Below are positions 7,490 through 30,050 of a stretch of DNA of 55,699 nucleotides, one piece after another. The notes under the pieces are model-generated. The model worked only from the letters and a program-made list of their open reading frames with translations, made no database searches and had not been told where the DNA came from. Numbering within the stretch: position 1 is the stretch's first letter; each line of letters opens with the position of its first letter. The position numbers and the translations under genes were made by a program. The stretch comes from a virus: the IMG/VR virus record IMGVR_UViG_3300045303_000132, positions 1 to 55,699 of that record; one strand, written 5' to 3'.

Positions 7490-7691
7490 CGGCAGCGTGC
7501 GATACCCGGACGTCGCGGTCCAGTTGACCGGCGAGGACGGGAACGCCTACGCGATCATGGGCGCGGTGGAAGCCGCACTCCGGCGGGCCGGTGTGTCGGC
7601 CGAGGAGATCGCGAAGTACAGGGAGGAGAGCATGTCGGGTGACTACGACAATCTCCTCGTCACGGCGATGCGCTGGGTGGACGTGTCGTGA
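7482..7691 (+). CDS. Conserved small actinobacterial/phage protein, 69 aa
   Basis: It has the pattern V-Q-L-T-G-E-D-G-N-A then A-L-R-R-A-G-V-S-A-E-E-I then S-G-D-Y-D-N-L-L, ending in a M-R-W-V-D-V segment. I recognise this arrangement from many actinophage and prophage small proteins of unknown function. GTG start; overlaps both neighbours. Confidence 0.75.
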   Translation: MSSGSVRYPDVAVQLTGEDGNAYAIMGAVEAALRRAGVSAEEIAKYREESMSGDYDNLLVTAMRWVDVS

Positions 7692-8887
7692 CCACTGATC
7701 AGGCACAGGCGACGTACGCCGCCGAGGATCTGTGGGAGAAGGAGGAGCCGCAGGCCCGGATCAAGTTCGGGGACTGGCACGAGGTCCAGCCCTTCTACGC
7801 CAGACTTGCGGCCATGTTCCGCGACGCCGGCGACGAGGTCTATCCGCCGACCGTGTACCCCCGGAGGGGTGCGCTCAACGCCCACTACGACGCGGCCACC
7901 TCCGCGGTCTACATCCCGCCGTACGACCAGGGCGGGTCGTGGGCGCTGATGACCAGCACCGCGATCCACGAGTTCGCGCACCACCTCACGCCGGGCGCGG
8001 GTCACGGACCGGACTTTCGGGCTGCGATGATCGAGTGCCTGGAGGTGATGGGCTGGAACGCCGAACTGCTGGCCGACTGCTACGCGCAGGCCGGTCTGTC
8101 GACCAGCGACAAGGTGGACGGGATCACCGACAAGGTGGCTCGGCTGATCACTCACGCGGAGGGCAAGGGCCGCACCCTGGAGGAGAAGAAGACCTTCCTC
8201 GAGAAGGCCGAGCGGCTGGCCGCCGAGAACTCCATCAACCTCGCGCTCATCCGGAAGCGGCAGGCCGACGCGGACGGGGAGGGGAAGAACGGGCGAGACC
8301 GACCCATGACCGGCAAGTTGTTCTCGCTGACCGCCCTGTCCAACGTGACGTACCGCAATCTCGCGGTGGAGTTGGGCAGCGCGATCAGCCGGGCGCACGG
8401 CGCGGAGTGCGCCATCCGGGGAAAGTCTCAGTGGCTGACGTTCTACGGGTTCCCCGAGGACGTCCACCTGACCGAGCTCATGCTCACCCGCGTCACGCCC
8501 ATGATGTTCGAGGCCGCGGATGAGTATCTCCGGTCCCCCGAGCACCGCGTCTCCGGGGCGGCAACGGTCAGCGCACGGATCACCTTCTGCAAGAACTTCT
8601 CGTGGGAGGTGGGCAAGCGGCTGAGGGAGGCGGTGAGGCAGGCCGAGCGCGACGTGGTGGAGACACTGGAACTCACCGACGGCAACGCCAGCGTGAGCAC
8701 CGAACTCGTCCTGCGGGAGAAGGCCGTCGAGGTGAGGGACTACGTCTTCCACGAGTTCAAGCGTCAAGGCGTGAAGGGTTCCTGGAAGGGAAGCAGCACG
8801 AACTCCTGGAGCGGCGGGGCAGCCGACGCGGGCCGGTCTGCCGCGAAGAGTGCCAATCTGTACGGAAGGAAGGAACTAGGATCATGA
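7688..8887 (+). CDS. HEXXH metallohydrolase-like protein fused to DUF2786
   Basis: A 399-aa protein in two parts. Residues 1-150 resemble TIGR04338/SprT-like metallohydrolases: IHEFAHHL near residue 98 is an HExxH zinc motif with a third ligand plausibly in GHGPDF about 12 residues later. Residues about 145-185 (KVARLITHAEGKGRTLEEKK and beyond) match the DUF2786 helical domain, followed by a longer C-terminal domain with basic and helical segments. Such proteins are common in actinobacteria and their phages; the substrate is unknown, and a protease or regulator-cleaving role is inference. The last 40 residues are Ser/Gly-rich and probably disordered. Confidence 0.75.
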   Translation: MTTDQAQATYAAEDLWEKEEPQARIKFGDWHEVQPFYARLAAMFRDAGDEVYPPTVYPRRGALNAHYDAATSAVYIPPYDQGGSWALMTSTAIHEFAHHLTPGAGHGPDFRAAMIECLEVMGWNAELLADCYAQAGLSTSDKVDGITDKVARLITHAEGKGRTLEEKKTFLEKAERLAAENSINLALIRKRQADADGEGKNGRDRPMTGKLFSLTALSNVTYRNLAVELGSAISRAHGAECAIRGKSQWLTFYGFPEDVHLTELMLTRVTPMMFEAADEYLRSPEHRVSGAATVSARITFCKNFSWEVGKRLREAVRQAERDVVETLELTDGNASVSTELVLREKAVEVRDYVFHEFKRQGVKGSWKGSSTNSWSGGAADAGRSAAKSANLYGRKELGS

Positions 8888-15372: not shown

Positions 15373-15856
15373 TGACCGGCTTGAGTTCGTAGCCGAACTG
15401 ACCTTGCTGGGGTTCAGCCCCGAGAAGATCGCGGAGCGGCTGGGGGTCAGCGTAGGCGTCGTGAAGAGCGACCTGGAGCAGATCCGCATCCGGTGGCAGA
15501 AGAACCGCCAGAAATCCTACTCGCAGTTCATCGAGGAGGAGTTGGCGACCCAGCAGATGCTGATGCGCTCTCTCGAGGACGGCATCAAGTTGGGATCGTG
15601 GAAGCACGTCGAGACGGCTCTCAAGATCACCGAGCGCCGCGCTCGAGTGTTTGGCCTGGACCACACCGATCGTATGGAGCAGGCGCGGGTGGAGATCGAG
15701 GCACGGCAACTCGACATGATCAGTCGTGCGCTGGAGCGCGTGATGGAGGTGCTGGGGCTGACTGACGAGCAGCGTGAACTCGCCACGGAGACACTGATTC
15801 TGGAACTGGAGGAGGGCGACATCGTAGTCGACCCAGATGGAGAAGAGGACGAATGA
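15359..15856 (+). CDS. Helix-turn-helix DNA-binding protein
   Basis: A 165-aa protein. Residues about 5-45 carry a helix-turn-helix (LTLLGFSPEKIAERLGVSVG, then VVKSDLEQIRIRWQ), like the sigma-70 region 4 or small-terminase type; the rest is long amphipathic helices that probably oligomerise. GTG at 15359 has AGAGGA upstream and is preferred over 15338. It could be a transcription regulator or the small terminase subunit, although the large subunit is 36 kb away. Overlaps its neighbours on both sides. Confidence 0.7.
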   Translation: MSARDDRLEFVAELTLLGFSPEKIAERLGVSVGVVKSDLEQIRIRWQKNRQKSYSQFIEEELATQQMLMRSLEDGIKLGSWKHVETALKITERRARVFGLDHTDRMEQARVEIEARQLDMISRALERVMEVLGLTDEQRELATETLILELEEGDIVVDPDGEEDE

Positions 15857-16785
15857 GTGTACTGACGGTCATCTCAACCACGTCGCAGCGGAAGAACCAT
15901 GCTGCGATCGCGTGTGCGAGATACAACGCGGATCACGGGTCGGTGGTGGTGCTCGATCAAGGGGGCGGCACCGTGCTCGACGGGTACGTGGAGGGGGACA
16001 CGTGGGTCCGCACGAAGCACGACAACCTCCTCGCGCAGTTGAGGACAGGGTGTGACCTCGCGCTCCTCGACGGCCACGACTACGTCGTCCTTCTCGATGA
16101 CGATGTCACCTACCTGACCCCGATCGAGCCGTCGGGCAACTCGTACCGCATCCGTTCGAAGAAGAACGTACCGGACGACCCGGACTGGCGGGGTGCCCTC
16201 ACGTACGAGAGCCTCTCATTCATCGACGACAACGTGGACACGTGGTTCCCCGGCGATCAGTCCATGCTGGTGGTGTCGTCCCGCCTGTTCTTCCCGAAGC
16301 CGAACGAGGTGGTCCCGCACTTCACTCCACTCACCATCGAGCGGTTCCCGTCCGTATTCAACGATCACGTCGTATGGAAGACTTCCAGGCTGGACGAGGT
16401 GCTCGGCGTGTTCGAGGACCTCGGGGTGCTGAACTACTCCGCGGGCGTGGACAAGGCGGGCGCGCTGGTGAACAACATCCTCGGCTACACGGTGGGTCGG
16501 CTCCAGTGGATCCGTGCCACGAAGTGGGACATCACCGGCAACGACGACTCCACGATCTACGACTTCGAGGACATCCCTGTCGACCAGAGGAACGTGTACC
16601 GGAACCAGGAGGATGCGAAGGCGCTGTTCAAGTTGCGCCCGTTCGTCGAGGAGAGCGGCCTGTCGTTCAAGGCGTCGATCACCAAGAACGGCAGCCTGAA
16701 CTCCTTCACCCGTACGACAGGCGTGTCTCTGGACAAGATGGTGGCGGACTATGTCCGCGGATCTGAGATGAAGGCGCTCATCTAG
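15853..16785 (+). CDS. Glycosyltransferase-like protein (GT-A fold)
   Basis: A 310-aa protein with an N-terminal Rossmann-like segment (LTVISTTSQRKNHAAIACAR) and a DYVVLLDDDVTYL motif near residue 80 that matches the D-x-D of GT-A transferases. The rest has further acidic and aromatic residues typical of sugar-binding pockets. It is separated from the other three transferases (25209-27549) by several genes, so it may glycosylate a different acceptor, or the same one at another step. Confidence 0.65.
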   Translation: MSVLTVISTTSQRKNHAAIACARYNADHGSVVVLDQGGGTVLDGYVEGDTWVRTKHDNLLAQLRTGCDLALLDGHDYVVLLDDDVTYLTPIEPSGNSYRIRSKKNVPDDPDWRGALTYESLSFIDDNVDTWFPGDQSMLVVSSRLFFPKPNEVVPHFTPLTIERFPSVFNDHVVWKTSRLDEVLGVFEDLGVLNYSAGVDKAGALVNNILGYTVGRLQWIRATKWDITGNDDSTIYDFEDIPVDQRNVYRNQEDAKALFKLRPFVEESGLSFKASITKNGSLNSFTRTTGVSLDKMVADYVRGSEMKALI

Positions 16786-19842: not shown

Positions 19843-19956
19843 ATGAGCGACCAACATGATTGTCTGGAAGATGGTTGCCAGTACGACGGCGCAGACAGCA
19901 ACCGGGCGTCGATGTTCTGCATCTGGTGCGGGCTGACCAGAGAAGACCTGGAGTGA
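19843..19956 (+). CDS. Zinc-finger mini-protein, 37 aa
   Basis: A 37-aa protein starting after a GAGAGGAG Shine-Dalgarno. Cysteines at 7 and 12 and a CIWC pair near residue 28 form a compact metal site. It ends in GTGA overlap with the polymerase start, so it is translationally coupled to it and may serve as an accessory or just as a coupling leader peptide. Confidence 0.65.
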   Translation: MSDQHDCLEDGCQYDGADSNRASMFCIWCGLTREDLE

Positions 19957-21989
19957 GCACGACACTCGAGATCAACAGCGTGACCCTCTCGGACACGGCA
20001 AAATCCATCATCCGCACGGCGTCCACCGCTGTCCTGGGTGGCCCGCTCCGGGTGACCCGCACCAAGGGGGACGCCGATCTTGCGTTTGACCTCCAGGACC
20101 AGAACGCCGCCGTGCGTACTCTCGGCCCGAAGCAGTTCCACGACACGGTCTGGATCGCCGGCAACGACGGGCAGGGCTTCCGCAAGGAGGTCGGCTACCC
20201 GAACGCTCAGTACTACGTCCGGTTCGCGCTGAAGCAGGCGTTCGGCATGGACCTGCACCTGTTCGACGACGACGTTCTCATCCTGGATACGGAGACGTTG
20301 GGGTCGGAGCACCGCTGGAACACCCATCCCCGTGACTTCTTCCGGCTGGGTCAGTACGCATGGGGCGAGGGTGAGGTAGTGCTCACCGAGGATTTCGACG
20401 AGGTGATCGAGGCGCTACGGTCGGCCCGGTTGATCATCGGGCACCAGATCCACACCTACGACCTGTCCTACCTGATGGGCGACGAGGCCCTCCACCTTCC
20501 GGTGTTCGACACCTTCGTCCACGCAACCTGCGTCACCCCCGCGCCCGACCGCTTTCTCAACGCGAAGGGTGTGACCCAACTCTCCAACTCGCCAGGGTCC
20601 GCGCTGGCGTTCCACTCGCTCGAGAACACCTGCTTCACCTTCGGCATCCCGGGGAAGCACGGCAACCTGAAAGAGATGGCGAAGCGCCACGGTTGTGACA
20701 TAGGCGAGATCCCCATGGACGACGAGTACCGCGACTATGCGCGACAGGACGTGGTGGCGAATCGGGAGTTGGCGCGGGCCATGTTCAGCGTTGCCGAGCC
20801 CACGGACTACGAGTGGCGTGAGCAGGAGGTAGCAGCGATCAACGCGCAGATCAGCCGTAACGGGTTCCGCGTGGACCGGGCGGTGGCCGAGGCGCGGGTG
20901 GAGGAACTCCAGCACCGGAAGAACGCCCTGCTCGTGGACCTCGCGCTGGACCACGGGTTCCCGATGACGGGGAAGCAGCCGTGGCGGAGCAACGCGGGGA
21001 AACAGGCGATCCTCGACATCCTGGGGCCGGACGCGAAAAGGCTGCCCAAGACGAAGAAGGGCGCACCGTCCCTGTCCGGTGACGCGATCAAGTCCGTGAC
21101 CGTAGGCACCGCGAACGAGGAGATGGGGGAGGCGCTCGGCGAACTGCTGGGTCAGCGGTCGCTGGCACAACTCGCGCTGGACAACGTGCAGGACGATGAG
21201 TTCGTCCACCCGGAGATCACCTCACTTCAGCGGTCACGGCGGTTCTCGGTGTCTGCCCCCGGCCTGTCCGTCTGGACAGCGCACGGCCCCGGCGCGATTG
21301 AGAAGTCCTACTTCGTGGCGGACGACGAGGACCACGTCCTGTACGAGATGGACTTCTCCGCGGCTGACGCTCGCGTGGTCGCGGCGTACAGCGGCGACAA
21401 GCGGTATCTCCGGGACATGACCAACCCGATGTTCGACGCTCACATCCAAACAGCGAGATGGTGCTTCGGGGCGAAGTTGGACGAAGACCCTAAGAAGTAC
21501 CGTCAGATCGCGAAAGACGTCACCCATGCCATCCCCTACGGCGCGGGAGGCAAGCGGGTCAGCGAGACGGTGGGCATCCCGGTGTCCCAGGGCCACGAGG
21601 TGATCAAGAGGTTCGGGAGCACCTACCCGTCGGTGGCTCGGTGGATGAAGCGCTCTCGTGAGGAAGGGAAGACCGGCACTCTGAAGAACGCATGGGGTGG
21701 GGTGCTCTACCTGGAGCCGGGCCGCGAGTACACGCAATCGCCCGCGCTGTTCGGTCAGAACGGCACCCGCGAACTCCTGGTGGACGGGATGATCCGGTGC
21801 CGGGATGCGGGGCTGCTCTGCTACTTGAAGATCACAGTCCACGACGCCGTGGTCTTCTCGTTCCCCAAGAGCAACCATGAGGCGATGAAGGCGAAGGCCG
21901 AGGCCTGCTTCACCACGAAGTTCCGGGAAGTTCCCTTCCCATTGACGAGCGGAAAGCCCGCTCATGACTGGTACAGAGCGGGGCATTAG
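19953..21989 (+). CDS. Family A DNA polymerase with 3'-5' exonuclease domain
   Basis: A 678-aa family A polymerase. The exonuclease domain begins with LILDTETLG near residue 109. Palm motif A is MDFSAADARVVAAYSGD (about 466), motif B is in RQIAKDVTHAIPYGAGG (about 515-530), and motif C is VHDAVVF (about 630). The usual VHDE is VHDA here, so the Glu next to the essential Asp is replaced. GTG start at 19953, overlapping the previous stop. It is the replicative polymerase of the phage and would have to copy templates carrying modified bases if the downstream cluster does modify DNA. Confidence 0.92.
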   Translation: MSTTLEINSVTLSDTAKSIIRTASTAVLGGPLRVTRTKGDADLAFDLQDQNAAVRTLGPKQFHDTVWIAGNDGQGFRKEVGYPNAQYYVRFALKQAFGMDLHLFDDDVLILDTETLGSEHRWNTHPRDFFRLGQYAWGEGEVVLTEDFDEVIEALRSARLIIGHQIHTYDLSYLMGDEALHLPVFDTFVHATCVTPAPDRFLNAKGVTQLSNSPGSALAFHSLENTCFTFGIPGKHGNLKEMAKRHGCDIGEIPMDDEYRDYARQDVVANRELARAMFSVAEPTDYEWREQEVAAINAQISRNGFRVDRAVAEARVEELQHRKNALLVDLALDHGFPMTGKQPWRSNAGKQAILDILGPDAKRLPKTKKGAPSLSGDAIKSVTVGTANEEMGEALGELLGQRSLAQLALDNVQDDEFVHPEITSLQRSRRFSVSAPGLSVWTAHGPGAIEKSYFVADDEDHVLYEMDFSAADARVVAAYSGDKRYLRDMTNPMFDAHIQTARWCFGAKLDEDPKKYRQIAKDVTHAIPYGAGGKRVSETVGIPVSQGHEVIKRFGSTYPSVARWMKRSREEGKTGTLKNAWGGVLYLEPGREYTQSPALFGQNGTRELLVDGMIRCRDAGLLCYLKITVHDAVVFSFPKSNHEAMKAKAEACFTTKFREVPFPLTSGKPAHDWYRAGH

Positions 21990-21991
21990 CG

Positions 21992-22858
21992 ATGAGCGAT
22001 GAGACAATGGACCTCTACCGAGGGATGGTGGTGGAGCGGCACAACATCTGGTGCGCCCGCCAGATGGGCGAGCCCCAGCCGTGGACTCACGACGTGGTGC
22101 TGGCGAACCGGAAGTTCACCAATATGTTCCGCGTCCTCGACCCCGGCTCGCAGTTCGTGTTCGACCTTGACAACGAGGACCCGGTGACCGTGATCGCCCG
22201 GCTGGTCTTCTACCGGATCACGAACCTGCCGTCTACGTGGTACGCGATGCGGGCCGCGCACGGACGCTACCCCACCGCCAATGACTTCACCCACTCGTCG
22301 GCATTCCTGTTCCAGATTCTCGACGCGCACCGGCTGAGTGGGAATCGCATCTTCAGCGGGGCGTACATCATCGTCCCTGAGCCCGGAACCGCGAACGACA
22401 AAGTGAGCGGGGCGCTACGCCTGACGGCCCTGTTCGTCAGGGAGAGGGCCGAGGCGTTCCTGGACGCCACCACTCAGGACGAGCGGTTCGACGTGCTGCG
22501 GTCCACCCCTGGTCTCGGGCCGTTCCTCTCGATGCAGATCCTCACCGATTGGGGCTACCTCCAGACCGCGGAGCCGGACCTGTCGTTCATCGTGGCTGGC
22601 CCCGGTGCTCGCCGTGGTGCCGCGCTGCTCTACCCGGCCAAGAAGCCGGAGGACGTGATCTACGACCTCGCCTTCGACTGGATGGATCATCCTTCCGTTA
22701 GGCTGGTCGGTCGCTCCCTCACGCTGATGGACGTGCAGAACACTCTCTGCGAGTTCAGCAAGTACGCGCGAGAACTCGTCGCCCCCCGCAAGAAGACGAC
22801 GTACCAGCCCTCGCACCCCGGCGCTCAGCCGGTCCCCGTTATCCCCCGATGGTGGTAG
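21992..22858 (+). CDS. Hypermodified-thymine biosynthesis protein (5-hmdU kinase / thymine pyrophosphorylase helical family)
   Basis: A 288-aa protein whose N-terminal part, W-C-A-R-Q-x-G-x-P-Q-P-W-T then L-A-N-R-K-F-T-N-M-F-R-V-L-D, matches the helical domain shared by predicted 5-hydroxymethyl-dU DNA kinases and alpha-glutamyl/putrescinyl thymine pyrophosphorylases. Later features are a GLGPFLSMQILTDWGYL segment (a helix-hairpin-helix-like G-x-G-x-F-x-x-x-Q-x-x-x-D motif, about 172) and a GPGARRG stretch (about 205). The family acts on 5-hydroxymethyl pyrimidines in DNA. No P-loop kinase domain is attached, so the pyrophosphorylase branch is the closer analogue. Directly upstream of the hydroxymethylase. 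Confidence 0.75.
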   Translation: MSDETMDLYRGMVVERHNIWCARQMGEPQPWTHDVVLANRKFTNMFRVLDPGSQFVFDLDNEDPVTVIARLVFYRITNLPSTWYAMRAAHGRYPTANDFTHSSAFLFQILDAHRLSGNRIFSGAYIIVPEPGTANDKVSGALRLTALFVRERAEAFLDATTQDERFDVLRSTPGLGPFLSMQILTDWGYLQTAEPDLSFIVAGPGARRGAALLYPAKKPEDVIYDLAFDWMDHPSVRLVGRSLTLMDVQNTLCEFSKYARELVAPRKKTTYQPSHPGAQPVPVIPRWW

Positions 22859-22891
22859 TGGAACACCCGACCACCACGAGCCTAGCCTGCC

Positions 22892-22922
22892 TGCTAGGCT
22901 AGGGGTACGGCAACGCCCCTAG
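22892..22922 (+). promoter_or_regulatory. Promoter plus 5' hairpin, copy 8 (variant)
   Basis: TGC plus TAGGCT (22895-22900). Here the hairpin is shifted upstream: CTAGGGG (22899-22905) pairs with CCCCTAG (22916-22922), a 7-bp stem with a 10-nt loop, so the stem overlaps the -10 box. GAGAAAGG follows and the ATG is at 22936. It drives the DNA-modification genes. Confidence 0.7.
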
Positions 22923-22935
22923 AGAAAGGTGACAC

Positions 22936-24459
22936 ATGACCCAGACATACACGTTCGCCACGGCAAGCGAGGCGCTCCCATTCATCTGCTCTCGTATCCT
23001 GGACGTCGGCGACGAGGTCGGCAGCAGGAACGGGCGGGTGAAGGAATTCCTGAACACCCAGATCGTGCTGACCGACCCGCAGCGGCGGGAGATCCTCACT
23101 CTCAACCGCAAGGCCAACGTCTTCGCGCAGATTGCTGAGACGATGTGGGTGCTGGCCGGGCGCAACGACATCGAGTGGCTGAGCGCCTACCTCCCACGCG
23201 CCAAGGACTACAGCGACGACGGGGAGACGTGGAGGGGCGGCTACGGCCCGCGGATCCGCGACTTGACCTTGTTCAACGGACACCGGCTTGATCAACTCGC
23301 CTACGTCGTGGACGTACTTCAGGCCGACCCACTGTCCCGGCGTGCGGTGATCGCGATCTACGACCCTGCCGTGGATACGGAGCCGGGTAAGGACATTCCC
23401 TGCAACGACTTTCTCCAGTTCCAGAGTCGCCTCGGTGCCCTGCACATGACGGTGACCGTGCGGTCGAACGACCTGATGTGGGGCTGGTCGGGCATCAACG
23501 CATTCGAGTGGAGCACCATCCAGGAGATTGTGGCCCACCTGCTCGGCATCGCCGTGGGCACGCTGACGTTCAACATCGGCAGCCTGCATCTCTATGACCG
23601 GCATTGGGACAAGGCCAGTCGTCTCAAGTACGAGGCCGACCCGTGGGCGATCACTCCGTTCCAGATACCGGACGCGGTGGATCGGACGTTGGAGTGGGTG
23701 GACATCTACATCGACCGTTGGTTCGAGTGGGAGGCGTTGTGCCGGAAGGGCGAGGCCACGCTGGAGGGTCTGGGTGAGATCGAGGAGCCGCTGTTCCAGT
23801 CCTGGGCGGCGGCGATTGCGTACTTCTGGCAGCGCGAGGACCACTGGCTCCAGATGCTCCGGCGCACGGCGTTGGCAGCAGCCATAGCCAGGACCCCTGC
23901 CAGCGTGCTCTCAGAGGCCCGTACAGCGTCGTCCAGCGGTGCGCCGGGGGTAACCCACAACCTAGCCGCGCACGAGCGCACACGGGCGTTCTACGCCTTC
24001 GTTACCGACCTGCACGCCAAGAAGCACGCGTCGTACGGGAACTCGTGGATGAAGCGGGGCGAGAAGCTCTCCATTCTGGCGAACATGGCTCGTAAGGTGG
24101 ACCGGCTGGGGGTCGGCGATGAGTACGACAGTTCGGCGGACACCCTGATCGACCTCCTGGTCTACGCGAGCAAGTATCACTGCTGGCTCCTCGGCTGTGA
24201 GGCGAGCCCGGAGAACGTGAATCAGGGGCTGGCCGTGGCTTTGGCAGAAGAAGAGGAGACCGTGGGGCAGGCGGCGGACATCGCCATCGTGGACATCGTC
24301 GACGACTTCAACCTCTACTGCAACAACATCGACACGTACATCACCGACGAGAAGGTGGACTTCATAGGCGAGCTGATCCTCCGAGTGACGCCCATCGCCC
24401 GCGATGTCTGGTACGAAGAGACCCACGGCACCGAGTACCGCGGAGCGGACGTAGACTGA
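22936..24459 (+). CDS. Thymidylate-synthase-like pyrimidine hydroxymethylase fused to Nmad1/DUF1599
   Basis: A 507-aa, two-domain protein. Residues 1-270 are a thymidylate synthase/hydroxymethylase fold: S-R-R-A-V-I-A-I-Y-D-P near residue 134 (phosphate Arg), I-P-C-N-D-F-L-Q-F near 153 with the catalytic Cys, R-S-N-D-L-M-W-G near 175 and S-G-I-N-A-F near 184. The Asn in GIN is the residue that selects dUMP in thymidylate synthase (Asp in dCMP hydroxymethylases), so a dUMP substrate is suggested; the W in DLMWG is hydroxymethylase-like. Residues 330-500 resemble Nmad1/DUF1599 (KKHASYGNSWMKRGEKLS, then N-M-A-R-K-V-D-R-L). The linker holds a 25-nt repeat (see 23907). Forms a pathway with the 21992 gene and the transferases. 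Confidence 0.8.
   Translation: MTQTYTFATASEALPFICSRILDVGDEVGSRNGRVKEFLNTQIVLTDPQRREILTLNRKANVFAQIAETMWVLAGRNDIEWLSAYLPRAKDYSDDGETWRGGYGPRIRDLTLFNGHRLDQLAYVVDVLQADPLSRRAVIAIYDPAVDTEPGKDIPCNDFLQFQSRLGALHMTVTVRSNDLMWGWSGINAFEWSTIQEIVAHLLGIAVGTLTFNIGSLHLYDRHWDKASRLKYEADPWAITPFQIPDAVDRTLEWVDIYIDRWFEWEALCRKGEATLEGLGEIEEPLFQSWAAAIAYFWQREDHWLQMLRRTALAAAIARTPASVLSEARTASSSGAPGVTHNLAAHERTRAFYAFVTDLHAKKHASYGNSWMKRGEKLSILANMARKVDRLGVGDEYDSSADTLIDLLVYASKYHCWLLGCEASPENVNQGLAVALAEEEETVGQAADIAIVDIVDDFNLYCNNIDTYITDEKVDFIGELILRVTPIARDVWYEETHGTEYRGADVD
23907..23931 (+). repeat. 25-nt dispersed repeat inside the hydroxymethylase linker
   Basis: These 25 bases are the exact reverse complement of 27620-27644, in the terminator region after the glycosyltransferases. 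In the protein they encode the linker between the two domains. Shorter related pieces (CCTCTGA, ACAGCGTC, ACCCACAAC) occur near 42420-42480. Confidence 0.7.
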
Positions 24460-24776
24460 TGACGACCTACACCGCACTTCTTGCGCTGCCGGACGGGCTC
24501 ATGGCGGCAGATGCTGCCGCCCGTATCCCCGGAGCAGTGGTCGTCGACAACGTCCAGGCTGGTGTGTGGGTGTCTTGGAGCACCGAGGCCGACACCGACA
24601 ACGAGGGGATCCAGGCCCTCCAGGAAATCCGGCTTCGGGCTGAGATGTTCGCCGAGTTCGCGGATGGAGGCGTCACCCCGTCCGGTGCCGATCCCTCCTT
24701 GTTCCAGACTACCCCGTTCATCATCCTGCGAGGTGCTGCATTCATCGTCCACACGGAAGAGGTGCTATGTCTGTGA
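24459..24776 (+). CDS. Hypothetical protein, 105 aa
   Basis: ATG overlaps the hydroxymethylase stop (TGATG). A small alpha/beta protein with an N-terminal LLALPDG strand and a VVVDNVQAGVWVSW core. Position in the modification operon suggests an accessory; not recognised. Confidence 0.65.
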   Translation: MTTYTALLALPDGLMAADAAARIPGAVVVDNVQAGVWVSWSTEADTDNEGIQALQEIRLRAEMFAEFADGGVTPSGADPSLFQTTPFIILRGAAFIVHTEEVLCL

Positions 24777-25015
24777 CGATCAACCACGGCACGAGAAGCG
24801 GGTACTACGCTCATCGCCGCCTGAGCGAGCCGCCGTGCGACGACTGTCGTGCGGCGATCAACGAGTACATCCGGGAGTACCGGAGCAGGACTGGCCTATC
24901 CCGCAATCGGGCTGGTGAGAAGATCCGGCGGAAGGCGTTGGCCGCGCTGCGGGACCGACACCGCGAGGAGTACGAGGATCTCCTGGTCGAGTTCCGTGCG
25001 GAAGAGATGATCTGA
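24767..25015 (+). CDS. Zinc-binding-like basic protein, 82 aa
   Basis: HGTRSGYYAHRRLSEPPCDDC near the N-terminus is a pattern I recognise from many small actinophage proteins: a His and a C-x-x-C pair that may hold zinc. The remaining helices are charged with Arg and Glu. Possibly DNA-binding. Overlaps its neighbours. Confidence 0.65.
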   Translation: MSVTINHGTRSGYYAHRRLSEPPCDDCRAAINEYIREYRSRTGLSRNRAGEKIRRKALAALRDRHREEYEDLLVEFRAEEMI

Positions 25016-25209
25016 TGGACCATCCGACGTTTGTCACCATCGAATACTGGCACCAGATGACTGCTTCCTGGGAGACCGGGCACGCCGGGATCAACCTGAT
25101 GAACCCTGCCACCTACGTCCAGAAGTTGGCGAAGCGCGGGGTCATCGCACGAGCCGTCGAGAAGGACACCGGGGTGACCGTGTACGGCGAAGGTGCAGAC
25201 CTCCTCTGA
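25015..25209 (+). CDS. Hypothetical protein, 64 aa
   Basis: ATG overlaps upstream stop. Small, aromatic-rich N-terminal half and a Lys/Arg helix in the middle. Not recognised. Ends one base into the first glycosyltransferase of the cluster. Confidence 0.6.
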   Translation: MDHPTFVTIEYWHQMTASWETGHAGINLMNPATYVQKLAKRGVIARAVEKDTGVTVYGEGADLL

Positions 25210-25907
25210 TGGACGTGGTCTACGTGTGCCGAAACGGGGACAACCCCGAACTCCGGTACTCCCTCCGCACGCTGGCGAACGTGGATCACGACCGCGTGTG
25301 GATCTTCGGCGGCGCGCCCACCTGGATCGACTTCACCGCCGTCACTCACCAGAAGCGAGCGCAGTGTGGGACCCCGTACTCCTCCACCCGGAGCCATATC
25401 GCAGCCGCGTGCAACACCCCAGAGGTGAGCGACCCCTTCGTACTCTGGAACGACGACTTCTTCGCGATGCACCCGGTCGGCACCGTGCCGCTCTACCACC
25501 GTGGCCCGCTGGAGCCCCTACTCGAGAAGTACGTCAAGATCAGGACGCCGTGGGGGAAGGGGTTACTCCAGACAGCCGCGATGATGGGAGGGCGCGGACT
25601 GCTGGCGGGCGCGATGTGCTACGACGTTCACCTCCCACTGGTTGTCTGCAAGGCAGAGATGCGGGAGGCGCTGCGGTTGGCGAAGAACGCTTCGACCGAC
25701 GCCATTCACGTGAGGACGTTGTACGGGGCCTTGTCAGGGCTGGACGGAGTGGAGCACCATGACCCGAAGTTGATGCGTCGAAGCGACCCGTTCCCGCGTG
25801 GTGCGTGGCTGTCTTCCAGCGACGACACATTCCGTTCAGCCGTGGAGCCGGTGCTGAGATACCTGTTCCCGGACGCATCACTCTACGAGAAAGCGATGTT
25901 CAGGTGA
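25209..25907 (+). CDS. Glycosyltransferase, Stealth-like
   Basis: A 232-aa protein beginning VVYVCRNGDNPELRYSLRTL, followed by VWIFGGAPTWI and LWNDDFFAM (about 79-87), an Asp-Asp motif like the CR2 region of Stealth-type phosphosugar transferases. It is overlapped by the next transferase (GTGA). Three such genes in a row beside base-modifying enzymes suggest that a sugar is added to modified DNA, though a cell-surface or virion acceptor is not excluded. Confidence 0.7.
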   Translation: MDVVYVCRNGDNPELRYSLRTLANVDHDRVWIFGGAPTWIDFTAVTHQKRAQCGTPYSSTRSHIAAACNTPEVSDPFVLWNDDFFAMHPVGTVPLYHRGPLEPLLEKYVKIRTPWGKGLLQTAAMMGGRGLLAGAMCYDVHLPLVVCKAEMREALRLAKNASTDAIHVRTLYGALSGLDGVEHHDPKLMRRSDPFPRGAWLSSSDDTFRSAVEPVLRYLFPDASLYEKAMFR

Positions 25908-26581
25908 CCCTCGGGATCCTACTCCCCACGCGGGGACGACCAGATAACCTCCACCGCTTCCTCTCGGCCACCGAGGACACTGCCGACGACTGGCACTTGT
26001 ACCTTCGGCTCGATTACGACGACCCGCAGGCACCCGCGTACGACGAAGTCATCGGGCGGGCGTACCGGCGCATCACGGTCCGCCACGGTCCCCGAGTCGG
26101 TTTCGGGGCGTCCCTGAACGAACTCGCCTTCCGGGCCGAGCGGGACGGGGTGTCGCACCTCGGCATGTTCGGCGACGACGTAGTGCCGGAGACCCCGCAT
26201 TGGGACACCCGGCTGGTCGAGGCGCTGGGCGACGACCTCGGCATCGCCTACGGTGACGACGGCCTACGGCACAAGCATGGACGCGACCTGCCGACGCACT
26301 ACGTCACCCACGCGGAGGTCTACCGCCGCCTCGGCTACCTGTCGCCACCCACGATCCGTCACCTGTATCTGGACAACGTGGCGAGGGACGTGGGTCTGTA
26401 TCTGAAGAACTTCGTGTTCGTGCCGGTCAGCATCAGGCACCTCCACCCGTGGGCCGAGGGCGAGCAGATCCACGACTCCACCTACGCCGAGGGCGGGCGC
26501 AACGCCGACCTCCGCCTCGCCGACCGGAGGGCGTACATCCAATGGACGCAGGACCGTGAGTGGAAGCGCCGCCTTCGGTGA
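25904..26581 (+). CDS. Glycosyltransferase, GT2-like
   Basis: GTG start. The 225-aa protein opens with LGILLPTRGRPDNLHRFL, the typical beta1-alpha1 of GT2 enzymes, with an acidic LRLDYDDP near 37 and a MFGDDVVPETPHWD near 92 that carries the D-x-D/D-D nucleotide-sugar motif. The C-terminal half has H-L-Y-L-D and H-P-W acceptor-like segments. Sits between the other two transferases with coupled start and stop. Confidence 0.75.
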   Translation: MTLGILLPTRGRPDNLHRFLSATEDTADDWHLYLRLDYDDPQAPAYDEVIGRAYRRITVRHGPRVGFGASLNELAFRAERDGVSHLGMFGDDVVPETPHWDTRLVEALGDDLGIAYGDDGLRHKHGRDLPTHYVTHAEVYRRLGYLSPPTIRHLYLDNVARDVGLYLKNFVFVPVSIRHLHPWAEGEQIHDSTYAEGGRNADLRLADRRAYIQWTQDREWKRRLR

Positions 26582-27549
26582 CACTGACCGCGTTCCTCCA
26601 CGGCTACCCGCCGCTCTGGTCCATGGGCGGAGAGATGTCTACGCACCGCACCCTCCGCGCCGTGCCGGGTTCCATTGTTTACACGAAGACGCTCGAGGAC
26701 TATCAGTTCGACGGGGTCTCGGTGAAGCCAGCGACGGGTACGTCCTTCCAGTGCATCAAGGACGACGCAAGATCCGCCGGGGCGACTGTCCTGTTCGGGC
26801 ACTCGACATTGTCCATGGACACTATCCGGGCTGCGAGGCAGTTGAAACTCCCGTCCATCCTCGCCGTCCACGCGCCACGCCGATTCGGGGCAGACCTGCA
26901 TCGGGCGAAGTCGTCAGCCACCGTGCGTCTCTACAACACGGAGGCCGCTCGGAAGGACTGGCACGACCCGAGGGGGTGGCTGCTGCACCCGCCTGTCGGT
27001 GGTCCGTCCGACTTGCCGGAGGGGCCGGGCAACGCGATAACGCTGACCTCGTCTCTCGTGAACAAGGGGGCGGCTCGCGTGCTCAAACTGGCGACACGGC
27101 GCTGGGACCAGAGGTTCATCATCGTGGAATCGCCTGCGCATCCCACCCACGGCGACCCTGACTTCTGGCACGATGCGCAGAAACTCGACAACGTGGAGAT
27201 CTGGCCGCGCCTGCACCCCGACGAGATGGGCAAACTCTGGGCCGAGACTCGCGTGCTGCTGGTCCCATCGCGGTACGAGACCTACGGCATGGCCGCGATG
27301 GAGGCGGCGTGGCACCATATCCCCTCGGTACACGTGGACACCCCCCACGTCCGCGAGGGAATCGGCACGGCGGCGTGCCTCATCAAGACGACGCATCTCG
27401 AGGAACTGGACCACGCGCTCACCGAGGTAGAACTAGAGCACGACGTCTGGGCAGACCGGGCCTTCCACCGCGCTGAAAGCCTCGCGCAGCGAGAATCAGA
27501 TGAGTTGGCCCTGTTTGCGGCGGGTGTGGCCGGGCTCACACCCCTGTAG
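26578..27549 (+). CDS. Glycosyltransferase, GT4/GT1-like (GT-B)
   Basis: A 323-aa GT-B fold protein. The C-terminal domain shows W-P-R-L-H-P-D-E-M-G-K-L-W then VLLVPSRYETYGMAAMEAAW (about 222-241), the E-x7-E-like donor-binding region of GT4 enzymes, followed by an I-P-S-V-H-V-D-T-P segment. GTG at 26578 is used because it overlaps the preceding stop. It is the last rightward gene; a strong hairpin lies right behind it. Probably transfers a hexose to the acceptor made by the upstream genes. Confidence 0.8.
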   Translation: MTLTAFLHGYPPLWSMGGEMSTHRTLRAVPGSIVYTKTLEDYQFDGVSVKPATGTSFQCIKDDARSAGATVLFGHSTLSMDTIRAARQLKLPSILAVHAPRRFGADLHRAKSSATVRLYNTEAARKDWHDPRGWLLHPPVGGPSDLPEGPGNAITLTSSLVNKGAARVLKLATRRWDQRFIIVESPAHPTHGDPDFWHDAQKLDNVEIWPRLHPDEMGKLWAETRVLLVPSRYETYGMAAMEAAWHHIPSVHVDTPHVREGIGTAACLIKTTHLEELDHALTEVELEHDVWADRAFHRAESLAQRESDELALFAAGVAGLTPL

Positions 27550-29537: not shown

Positions 29538-30050
29538 TCACTGTCCGTCTTGAACACACACCTGGATGACGAGGTCCCTGTCGATCGGTGCTCGCTGGTG
29601 GACAGCCACCACCTGGAAGGTGAATCCAGGGGGACAGGCTCCTGGAGGCTGCGCGGGGCCGGGTGGTCCTCGCCGTCCTCGTGGCCCTTCCTGTCCGGGC
29701 TTACCTCGTGGTCCTGTCACGCTGCGGCCACGAGGACCAGGGCGACCATCACGCCCGTCAGCACCACTGCGCCCAGGAGCGCCAGTGTCACCAGTACGAC
29801 CATCAGTGCCTGGAGGCCCAGGAACACCAGCACGACCCGGAGGGCCGGGAGGACCCACCTCACCTTGGATTCCTTGCGGCCCCGGTGGGCCGGGCTCTGG
29901 TGTCGTGTCATGGGTGGGAGTGCTGACCGCGCTGATGGAGTCCCCGGTGTCGGCTCGGGCTACTGCGATCGTCCCGGCGAAGGCCACGAGCATCAGGACG
30001 CCGGCGAGGCCGTAGCCGATGATCGGGTTACCGTAGACTCTCTGCATCAT
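29538..30050 (-). CDS. Membrane-anchored collagen-like protein
   Basis: A 170-aa protein: an N-terminal hydrophobic helix (about residues 11-30), then about 28 Gly-x-y repeats (residues 53-137) broken only at a few positions, and a C-terminal Cys-containing globular part ([10 protein letters not shown], then VIQVCVQDG). Such collagen-like triple helices occur in phage tails and host-surface proteins and may form a trimeric fibre. The N-terminal helix may be a signal or anchor. ATG overlaps the upstream stop (ATGA). Confidence 0.8.

What the first reader, a model, noticed from the sequence alone, without database searches (positions are those of the whole stretch)
21992..27549. Candidate DNA hypermodification and glycosylation cluster
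Gene order: helical-family protein of the hmdU kinase / thymine pyrophosphorylase group, thymidylate-synthase-like hydroxymethylase fused to an Nmad1/DUF1599-like domain, small accessory genes, then three glycosyltransferases of different folds (Stealth-like, GT2, GT-B). The hydroxymethylase keeps Asn where dCMP enzymes have Asp, pointing to dUMP. No P-loop hmdU kinase is seen, so the chemistry may differ from the characterised phages. A sugar on a thymine-derived base is the simplest prediction.
Basis: partly seen in the sequence, partly recalled or inferred. Interest (0 to 1): 0.85.

Follow-up and report, generated by a model that had tools for sequence, protein, structure and literature searches.

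The report
Phage genes that sugar-coat its thymine
A phage genome from environmental DNA carries a run of genes that probably makes a modified thymine and hangs sugars on it, keeping half of a known DNA-modifying kinase but swapping the other half for sugar-transferring enzymes; the product has not been measured.

Summary
The cluster is real: nine tightly packed + strand genes, 19953-27549, in a 55.7-kb phage record. Gene 21992 belongs to PF18723, the helical half of the 5-hmdU DNA kinase. It is not the amino acid transferase, which is a separate family (PF18724) absent here. Gene 22936 is a TS-like hydroxymethylase with the dUMP-type Asn, fused to an all-helical domain.

Relatives show a pattern. 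Helical protein plus hydroxymethylase form a constant core that comes either with the P-loop kinase (23 of 40 loci) or with TET-associated-type DNA glycosyltransferases (11 of 40), never both. Six loci, the window among them, have neither by profile; the window has other glycosyltransferases. On the helical-protein tree the label changes about six times, and 14 residues stay invariant on both sides.

Best reading: glycosylated 5-hydroxymethyl-dU in phage DNA, the helical protein kept as a base-flipping partner of glycosyltransferases (inferred). New variant of a known kind. LuckyBarnes, an isolated phage with a kinase-less core, makes it testable. Microbacterium relatives carry the dCMP-type Asp, so the base may differ there.

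The parts
19953..21989 (+). DNA polymerase A family gene, first gene of the run; 2 bp before the helical gene (start chosen by coding score; an upstream start at 19860 is also open)
   Evidence: PF00476 E 2.5e-24; spacing
21992..22858 (+). HMUDK_hel protein (PF18723, aGPT-Pplase clade 1), HhH-glycosylase-like all-helical fold; predicted 5-hmdU recognition/base-flipping partner
   Evidence: E 1.7e-46; AF2 pLDDT 90; best structural match 8z2n Z 10.5, then HhH DNA glycosylases; 14 residues invariant in 29 rows
22936..24459 (+). dUMP-type pyrimidine hydroxymethylase (TS fold, Cys156, Asn188) fused to an all-helical Nmad1-like domain (about residues 342-497)
24459..24776 (+). small accessory gene, 105 aa, no family; conserved in sister contigs
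24767..25015 (+). small accessory gene, 82 aa, similar to the C-terminal stretch of WhiB-like phage proteins
   Evidence: phrog_12112 E 7.5e-9
25015..25209 (+). small accessory gene, 64 aa, conserved in sister contigs
25209..25907 (+). Stealth-like transferase; candidate sugar-1-phosphate or sugar transferase
   Evidence: Stealth_CR2 E 2.5e-4, under cut-off; profile A8 vs GNPTAB catalytic domain E 2.6e-5
25904..26581 (+). GT-A/GT2-like glycosyltransferase
   Evidence: phrog_14945 E 1.9e-33; weak profile similarity to TAGT over 94 columns
26578..27549 (+). GT-B (GT4-like) glycosyltransferase; GTG start at 26578 favoured by relatives
   Evidence: Glyco_trans_1_4 E 3.1e-8; alignment; spacing
15853..16785 (+). 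probable fourth glycosyltransferase (GT-A-like, YVVLLDDD), about 4.1 kb before the polymerase, where sister contig L004 has a second TAGT
   Evidence: no Pfam match

Best explanation
The run encodes a post-replicative DNA base modification. Step 1 (inferred from family and active-site residues): the TS-like enzyme turns dUMP into 5-hydroxymethyl-dUMP; host kinases and the phage polymerase put 5hmdU into DNA in place of thymine. Step 2 (inferred): the HMUDK_hel protein, which has a helix-hairpin-helix DNA-glycosylase-like fold and in other phages is the helical half of the 5-hmdU DNA kinase, flips out or presents 5hmdU. Step 3 (inferred): instead of the P-loop kinase acting on the exposed hydroxymethyl group, glycosyltransferases do: a first one sets a sugar (or, through the Stealth-like enzyme, a sugar-1-phosphate) and the others extend it. 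The result would be a glycosylated 5-hydroxymethyluracil, base-J-like, shielding the DNA from nucleases. Shown here: gene content, fold prediction, residue conservation, and the kinase-or-glycosyltransferase pattern among relatives. Not shown: any chemistry.
For: Gene identities. TS domain nearest to a hydroxymethylase in structure (MilA Z 35.9 against 24.5 for the best thymidylate synthase), under all thymidylate synthase equivalog cut-offs that it matches, with Asn at the base-reading position, as in M6, a known 5hmdU-derived phage, and SBSphiC; T4 dCMP hydroxymethylase has Asp. PF18723 and the kinase PF18748 are one protein in SBSphiC. Of 40 distinct loci with the helical protein, 23 have the kinase, 11 TAGT-type GTs, 0 both, 6 neither. 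Whole-record searches of 35 records: kinase 17, TAGT over cut-off 11, overlap 0. 42 Microbacterium records have the helical protein; listed kinase hits 13 at 78% identity or more, GT hits 18, no name in both. Six label changes on the tree, at least 3 forced by well-supported branches. 14 residues invariant across 17 kinase-linked and 12 kinase-less rows. Nine genes with gaps from -10 to 77 bp, the last six starts overlapping the gene before.
Against: The window has no TAGT; its own three cluster GTs were found only in its close sister contigs (the Stealth-like one also on three short contigs, L048-L050, at 34-35% identity), so the link of these particular GTs to DNA rests on position and on sisters L004, L006 and L020 that carry both sets. 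Actinophage GTs can glycosylate virion proteins (PMC11256854, passages). L015 and L074 have the core with neither kinase nor TAGT. The structural matches are moderate for a helical model (Z 10.5; Foldseek E 0.12), and the profile comparison with the amino acid transferase found nothing. Microbacterium relatives have Asp, so the helical protein is not strictly tied to uracil.
Confidence: 0.55

Rival explanations
1. The DNA is modified on cytosine: the enzyme makes 5hmdC and the sugars go on it, T-even style.
For: TAGT is known from T6, where it adds a second glucose to glucosyl-hmC (PMC13216743, passages); the closest solved structure of the TS domain is a CMP hydroxymethylase; LuckyBarnes' authors call its enzyme a dCMP-hydroxymethylase (PMC6588365, passage); 7 of 7 Microbacterium loci have the dCMP-type Asp.
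Against: Asn at the base-reading position in the window, in 21 of 21 rows of A3 and in M6 and SBSphiC; Asp in T4.
Confidence: 0.15
2. The hydroxymethylase and helical protein modify DNA, but the three GTs glycosylate virion proteins or other targets.
For: Capsid glycosylation is reported for mycobacteriophages (PMC11256854, passages); the GTs lie next to the structural arm; they were found only in the window's close kin.
Against: The GTs overlap one another and the small genes behind the hydroxymethylase, on the strand opposite to the structural genes; three sister contigs insert a TAGT inside the same run.
Confidence: 0.2
3. The helical protein is a second, kinase-independent transferase that itself adds a group to 5hmdU or to the sugar.
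For: Its best structural match is the PaMx11 glycinyltransferase (8z2n, Z 10.5); invariant residues kept without the kinase.
Against: It occurs beside a separate transferase (PF18724) in M6 and in most kinase-type loci, and is fused to the kinase in SBSphiC; no leaving group is made without the kinase (inference); no sequence similarity to PF18724-type proteins.
Confidence: 0.12
4. The helical gene is a decaying leftover of a lost kinase system and the phage carries plain 5hmdU or thymine.
For: The kinase, PF18724 and PLP genes that usually go with it are absent.
Against: The same 14 residues are invariant in kinase-less rows; 69-75% identity over full length in sister contigs.
Confidence: 0.06

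Closest known systems
M6-type thymidine hypermodification (Pseudomonas phage M6, 5-NedU)
   Same: TS-like hydroxymethylase with Asn, HMUDK_hel protein (gp055), both near the polymerase gene
   Different: M6 has the P-loop kinase gp054 (PF18748), the amino acid transferase gp051 (PF18724) and tailoring enzymes (M6-like cassette in PMC9476957, passages); the window lacks kinase and transferase and has glycosyltransferases
Brevibacterium phage LuckyBarnes
   Same: TS/Nmad fusion, helical protein, two GTs, no kinase, same genome plan
   Different: its GTs are TAGT family, in another gene order; its paper suggests DNA modification by a dCMP-hydroxymethylase and two GTs (PMC6588365, passage)
Glutamicibacter phage Montesquieu
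   Same: polymerase, helical protein, TS fusion in the same order
   Different: followed by transferase, PLP enzyme and kinase instead of GTs
T-even glucosylation (alpha-GT, beta-GT, TAGT on 5hmC)
   Same: hydroxymethyl base made at nucleotide level, then DNA glycosyltransferases (PMC13216743, passages)
   Different: cytosine; T4 enzyme has Asp; no helical protein that I know of (recalled)
SP-15 glucosyl and phosphoglucuronyl dihydroxypentyluracil; base J
   Same: sugars on a thymine-like base; SP-15 also has a sugar phosphodiester (PMC5977210, passages)
   Different: SP-15 uses Thy1-type synthases and a different side chain; base J is made by thymine hydroxylation (PMC6449724, passages)

Membership tests
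Kinase-dependent thymidine hypermodification (M6/ViI/PhiW-14 type) | TS-like dUMP hydroxymethylase | tested here: met
   PF00303, Asn188, MilA-like fold; activity itself not testable
Kinase-dependent thymidine hypermodification (M6/ViI/PhiW-14 type) | P-loop 5-hmdU DNA kinase | tested here: not met
   no match of A4 or PF18748 in the whole 55.7-kb record; Walker A scan; A4 does find kinases it was not built from (for example L010, L019, L065, L072, L073)
Kinase-dependent thymidine hypermodification (M6/ViI/PhiW-14 type) | amino acid:DNA transferase PF18724 | tested here: not met
   0 matches in window (where 10 of 27 records match; A11, a call without a positive control)
HMUDK_hel family PF18723 | profile match over the curated cut-off | tested here: met
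   159 bits against 25
HhH DNA glycosylase fold | overall fold | tested here: inconclusive
   top matches almost all HhH glycosylases or the glycinyltransferase, but Z about 8-10 for a helical model
TET-associated DNA glycosyltransferase (TAGT, PF20691) | profile match over cut-off in the window | tested here: not met
   no match in G000; 11 of 35 records over cut-off
Stealth sugar-1-phosphate transferases | Stealth conserved regions over cut-off | tested here: inconclusive
   CR2 21.6 bits against a cut-off of 39.4; profile similarity to GNPTAB E 2.6e-5
Nmad1 / DUF1599 | profile match over cut-off | tested here: not met
   0 of 21 members, domain alone 0
Nmad1 / DUF1599 | distant similarity through SBSphiC | tested here: inconclusive
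   A3 profile to SBSphiC gene 8e-11; that gene to DUF1599 E 0.02
Glycosylated phage DNA | sugar on virion DNA base | not testable with these tools
   needs LC-MS

The most novel reading that the evidence does not exclude
A kinase-less branch of thymidine hypermodification in actinophages: the helical half of the 5-hmdU DNA kinase has become a general base-flipping adaptor that hands 5-hydroxymethylpyrimidines to glycosyltransferases, giving a base-J-like glycosyl-hmU in phage DNA; in the window the Stealth-like enzyme sets a sugar through a phosphodiester, so that a sugar-1-phosphate transferase has taken over the kinase's phosphate-setting step.
Probability: 0.2. Interest if true: 0.9.

Novelty: new variant of a known kind. 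Interest (0 to 1): 0.68.

Why it matters
[quoted passage not shown] It would assign a job to a protein family usually filed as part of a kinase, by showing that it works without the kinase, and give a substrate to some of the solitary TAGT glycosyltransferases, which were counted in 288 of 753 genomes and left unassigned (PMC13216743, passages). Isolated relatives (LuckyBarnes, Neferthena-type Microbacterium phages) make both points testable at once, including a natural uracil-versus-cytosine comparison.

Tried and rejected
Considered and rejected: that the 21992 product is the amino acid transferase. M6 carries both families (PF18723 and PF18724) and the solved glycinyltransferase belongs with PF18724. 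Considered: that the kinase is only hidden. PF18748 alone would have misled, since it finds 3 of 35 records over cut-off and misses all the actinophage kinases; the home-made profile A4 finds 17 of 35 but is built from 13 of these proteins, so its hits on those are by construction; matches outside its training set are.

Led nowhere: phmmer of the helical protein against PDB sequences (0 matches); the Nmad part against PDB (2 chance-level matches); GT2 profile against PDB (0); TAGT profile against PDB (1 weak, to an entry named transcriptional regulator); profile comparison of the helical protein with PF18724-type proteins (E 0.14); the upstream GT against GT2 (E 0.21); the helical profile in the genome collection (33 pattern stretches, none a relative). 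DNA similarity to named phages is slight (3 records). Domain fold of the Nmad part was not searched alone: the VIA list for the whole model was filled by the TS domain. M6 shows a TAGT match of 13.3 bits, under cut-off and on the strand opposite to its ribonucleotide reductase gene, which I treat as chance. The hypergeometric values (7.6e-5 and 9.8e-5) treat related records as independent and are not used as evidence of more than a pattern. Three of 16 Microbacterium kinase records were not in the listing, and 6 of the 11 Microbacterium records with neither listed hit were not opened; the 5 opened are. Key papers (Lee 2018, Lee 2021, Iyer 2013, Wen 2024, Hutinet 2021) are not held; what I say of them beyond cited passages is recalled.
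Full report
What is there. The window is a whole IMG/VR virus record of 55,699 bases with early genes on + and structural genes on -, the plan of LuckyBarnes and Montesquieu. From the polymerase to 27549 nine genes follow with gaps of 2, 77, -1, -10, -1, -1, -4 and -4 bp, so they are very likely one transcription unit.

The helical gene. 21992-22858 is PF18723. The AlphaFold2 model (21 sequences, mean pLDDT 90.2) is all-helical. Foldseek against the PDB is weak (best E 0.12) but its top eight rows are HhH DNA glycosylases and the PaMx11 glycinyltransferase. The structural realignment puts the glycinyltransferase 8z2n first (Z 10.5, rmsd 4.1, 218 residues), then glycosylases such as AGOG and Ogg (Z 9.7) and endonuclease III (Z 8.4), with the queuine salvage enzyme 7ugk (Z 9.6) among them. 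The tool warns that such Z values are moderate for helical models. By eye the stretch LRSTPGLGPFLSMQIL looks like a helix-hairpin-helix motif (motif recalled). In the viral structure library the SP10 5-hmdU DNA kinase is third (E 1.8e-9). In the phage SBSphiC (an SP10 relative, recalled) one 636-aa frame holds PF18748 (P-loop kinase, 35-193) and PF18723 (312-597), and in M6 the two are neighbouring genes gp054 and gp055, with the PF18724 transferase as gp051. M6 gp051 matches the solved glycinyltransferase at 1.2e-90. So the window keeps the helical half of the kinase and lacks both the P-loop half and the transferase.

The hydroxymethylase. Sequence and structure are nearest to MilA, a CMP hydroxymethylase. 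Cys156, Asp179, Asn188, His218 and Tyr220 are invariant in the 21 rows of A3. The base-reading position a few residues after RS(N/M)D is Asn in 34 and Asp in 7 of the 41 distinct loci with a TS gene, read by eye from its motif column, the 7 being all the Microbacterium loci; T4 gene 42 has Asp. That this residue tells dUMP from dCMP enzymes is recalled; it is calibrated here by M6, whose 5hmdU-derived base is established (PMC6449724, passages), and by T4.

The glycosyltransferases. Stealth-like, GT2-like, GT-B, and a probable fourth at 15853 with a DDD motif, matched only weakly by PHROG glycosyltransferase 2456 (E 0.046, and 0.002 for its L003 homologue) and by profile comparison with TAGT (probability 79%, 71 columns). 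Sisters L004, L006 and L020 carry a TAGT between the hydroxymethylase and the small genes; the window, L003 and L025 do not (the L025 contig is cut before its helical gene).

The pattern. Of 43 loci reported, one is a duplicate contig (L066 of L036) and two lack the helical gene (L025, L048), which leaves 40. Kinase: 23. TAGT: 11. Both: 0. Neither: 6 (window, L003, L015, L067, L074, L056). L067 is cut inside the hydroxymethylase and L056 (Pikmin) has a TAGT-like gene under cut-off. These are stretches, not whole records. Whole-record searches of 35 records give 17 with the kinase and 11 with TAGT over cut-off, none with both. Among Microbacterium phages 42 records carry the helical protein; the listed kinase (13) and GT (18) hits do not overlap. 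On a tree of 32 helical proteins the kinase label needs 6 changes, at least 3 forced by starred branches; the labels are clustered (shuffled mean 10.2), and several long branches are placed unsurely. Fourteen residues are invariant in 17 kinase-linked and 12 kinase-less rows. The helical protein thus stays under the same constraint whichever enzyme accompanies it, which fits a role in recognising or presenting the base.

What is inferred. That the helical protein flips the base, that the GTs act on DNA, which sugar is used, and the order of the GTs. The Stealth-like enzyme's nearest solved relative transfers GlcNAc-1-phosphate, so a phosphodiester-linked sugar is possible; SP-15 DNA has such a linkage (PMC5977210, passages).

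Limits. The window lacks TAGT itself; virion glycosylation is a live rival; the LuckyBarnes paper already suggested DNA modification by its hydroxymethylase and two GTs, naming cytosine (PMC6588365, passage). I found no paper on glycosylated hmU in phage DNA in the searches, in a library that lacks most subscription journals and the main papers on thymidine hypermodification.

Noticed in passing
L043, L045, L056-L060 (Microbacterium phages): The TS-like enzymes have the dCMP-type Asp although they go with PF18723 and, in SirVictor (L043), with the kinase: possibly phosphorylated or glycosylated hmC.
   Followed up: partly
L015 4631-7261; L074 9968-11974: Helical protein plus hydroxymethylase with neither kinase nor TAGT in the fetched stretch.
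   Followed up: partly
35 records: Pfam PF18748 misses all the actinophage hmdU-kinase-like proteins that profile A4 finds; the family model looks too narrow.
   Followed up: yes
L044 15924-16871: Montesquieu has two adjacent kinase-like genes.
   Followed up: no
L048, L049, L050: Distant Stealth-like homologues (34-35% identity) on short contigs; context not studied.
   Followed up: no
PMC13092281 figure legend: A validated bacterial defence system is drawn with thymidylate synthase, dNMP kinase, 5-hmdU kinase and NMAD domains in its legend: the same kinds of parts on the host's side.
   Followed up: no
window 29538-30050, - strand: Frame with collagen-like GPP repeats among the lysis/tail genes.
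   Followed up: no
window 7688-8887, + strand: DUF7168 protein with a weak SprT-like stretch.
   Followed up: no
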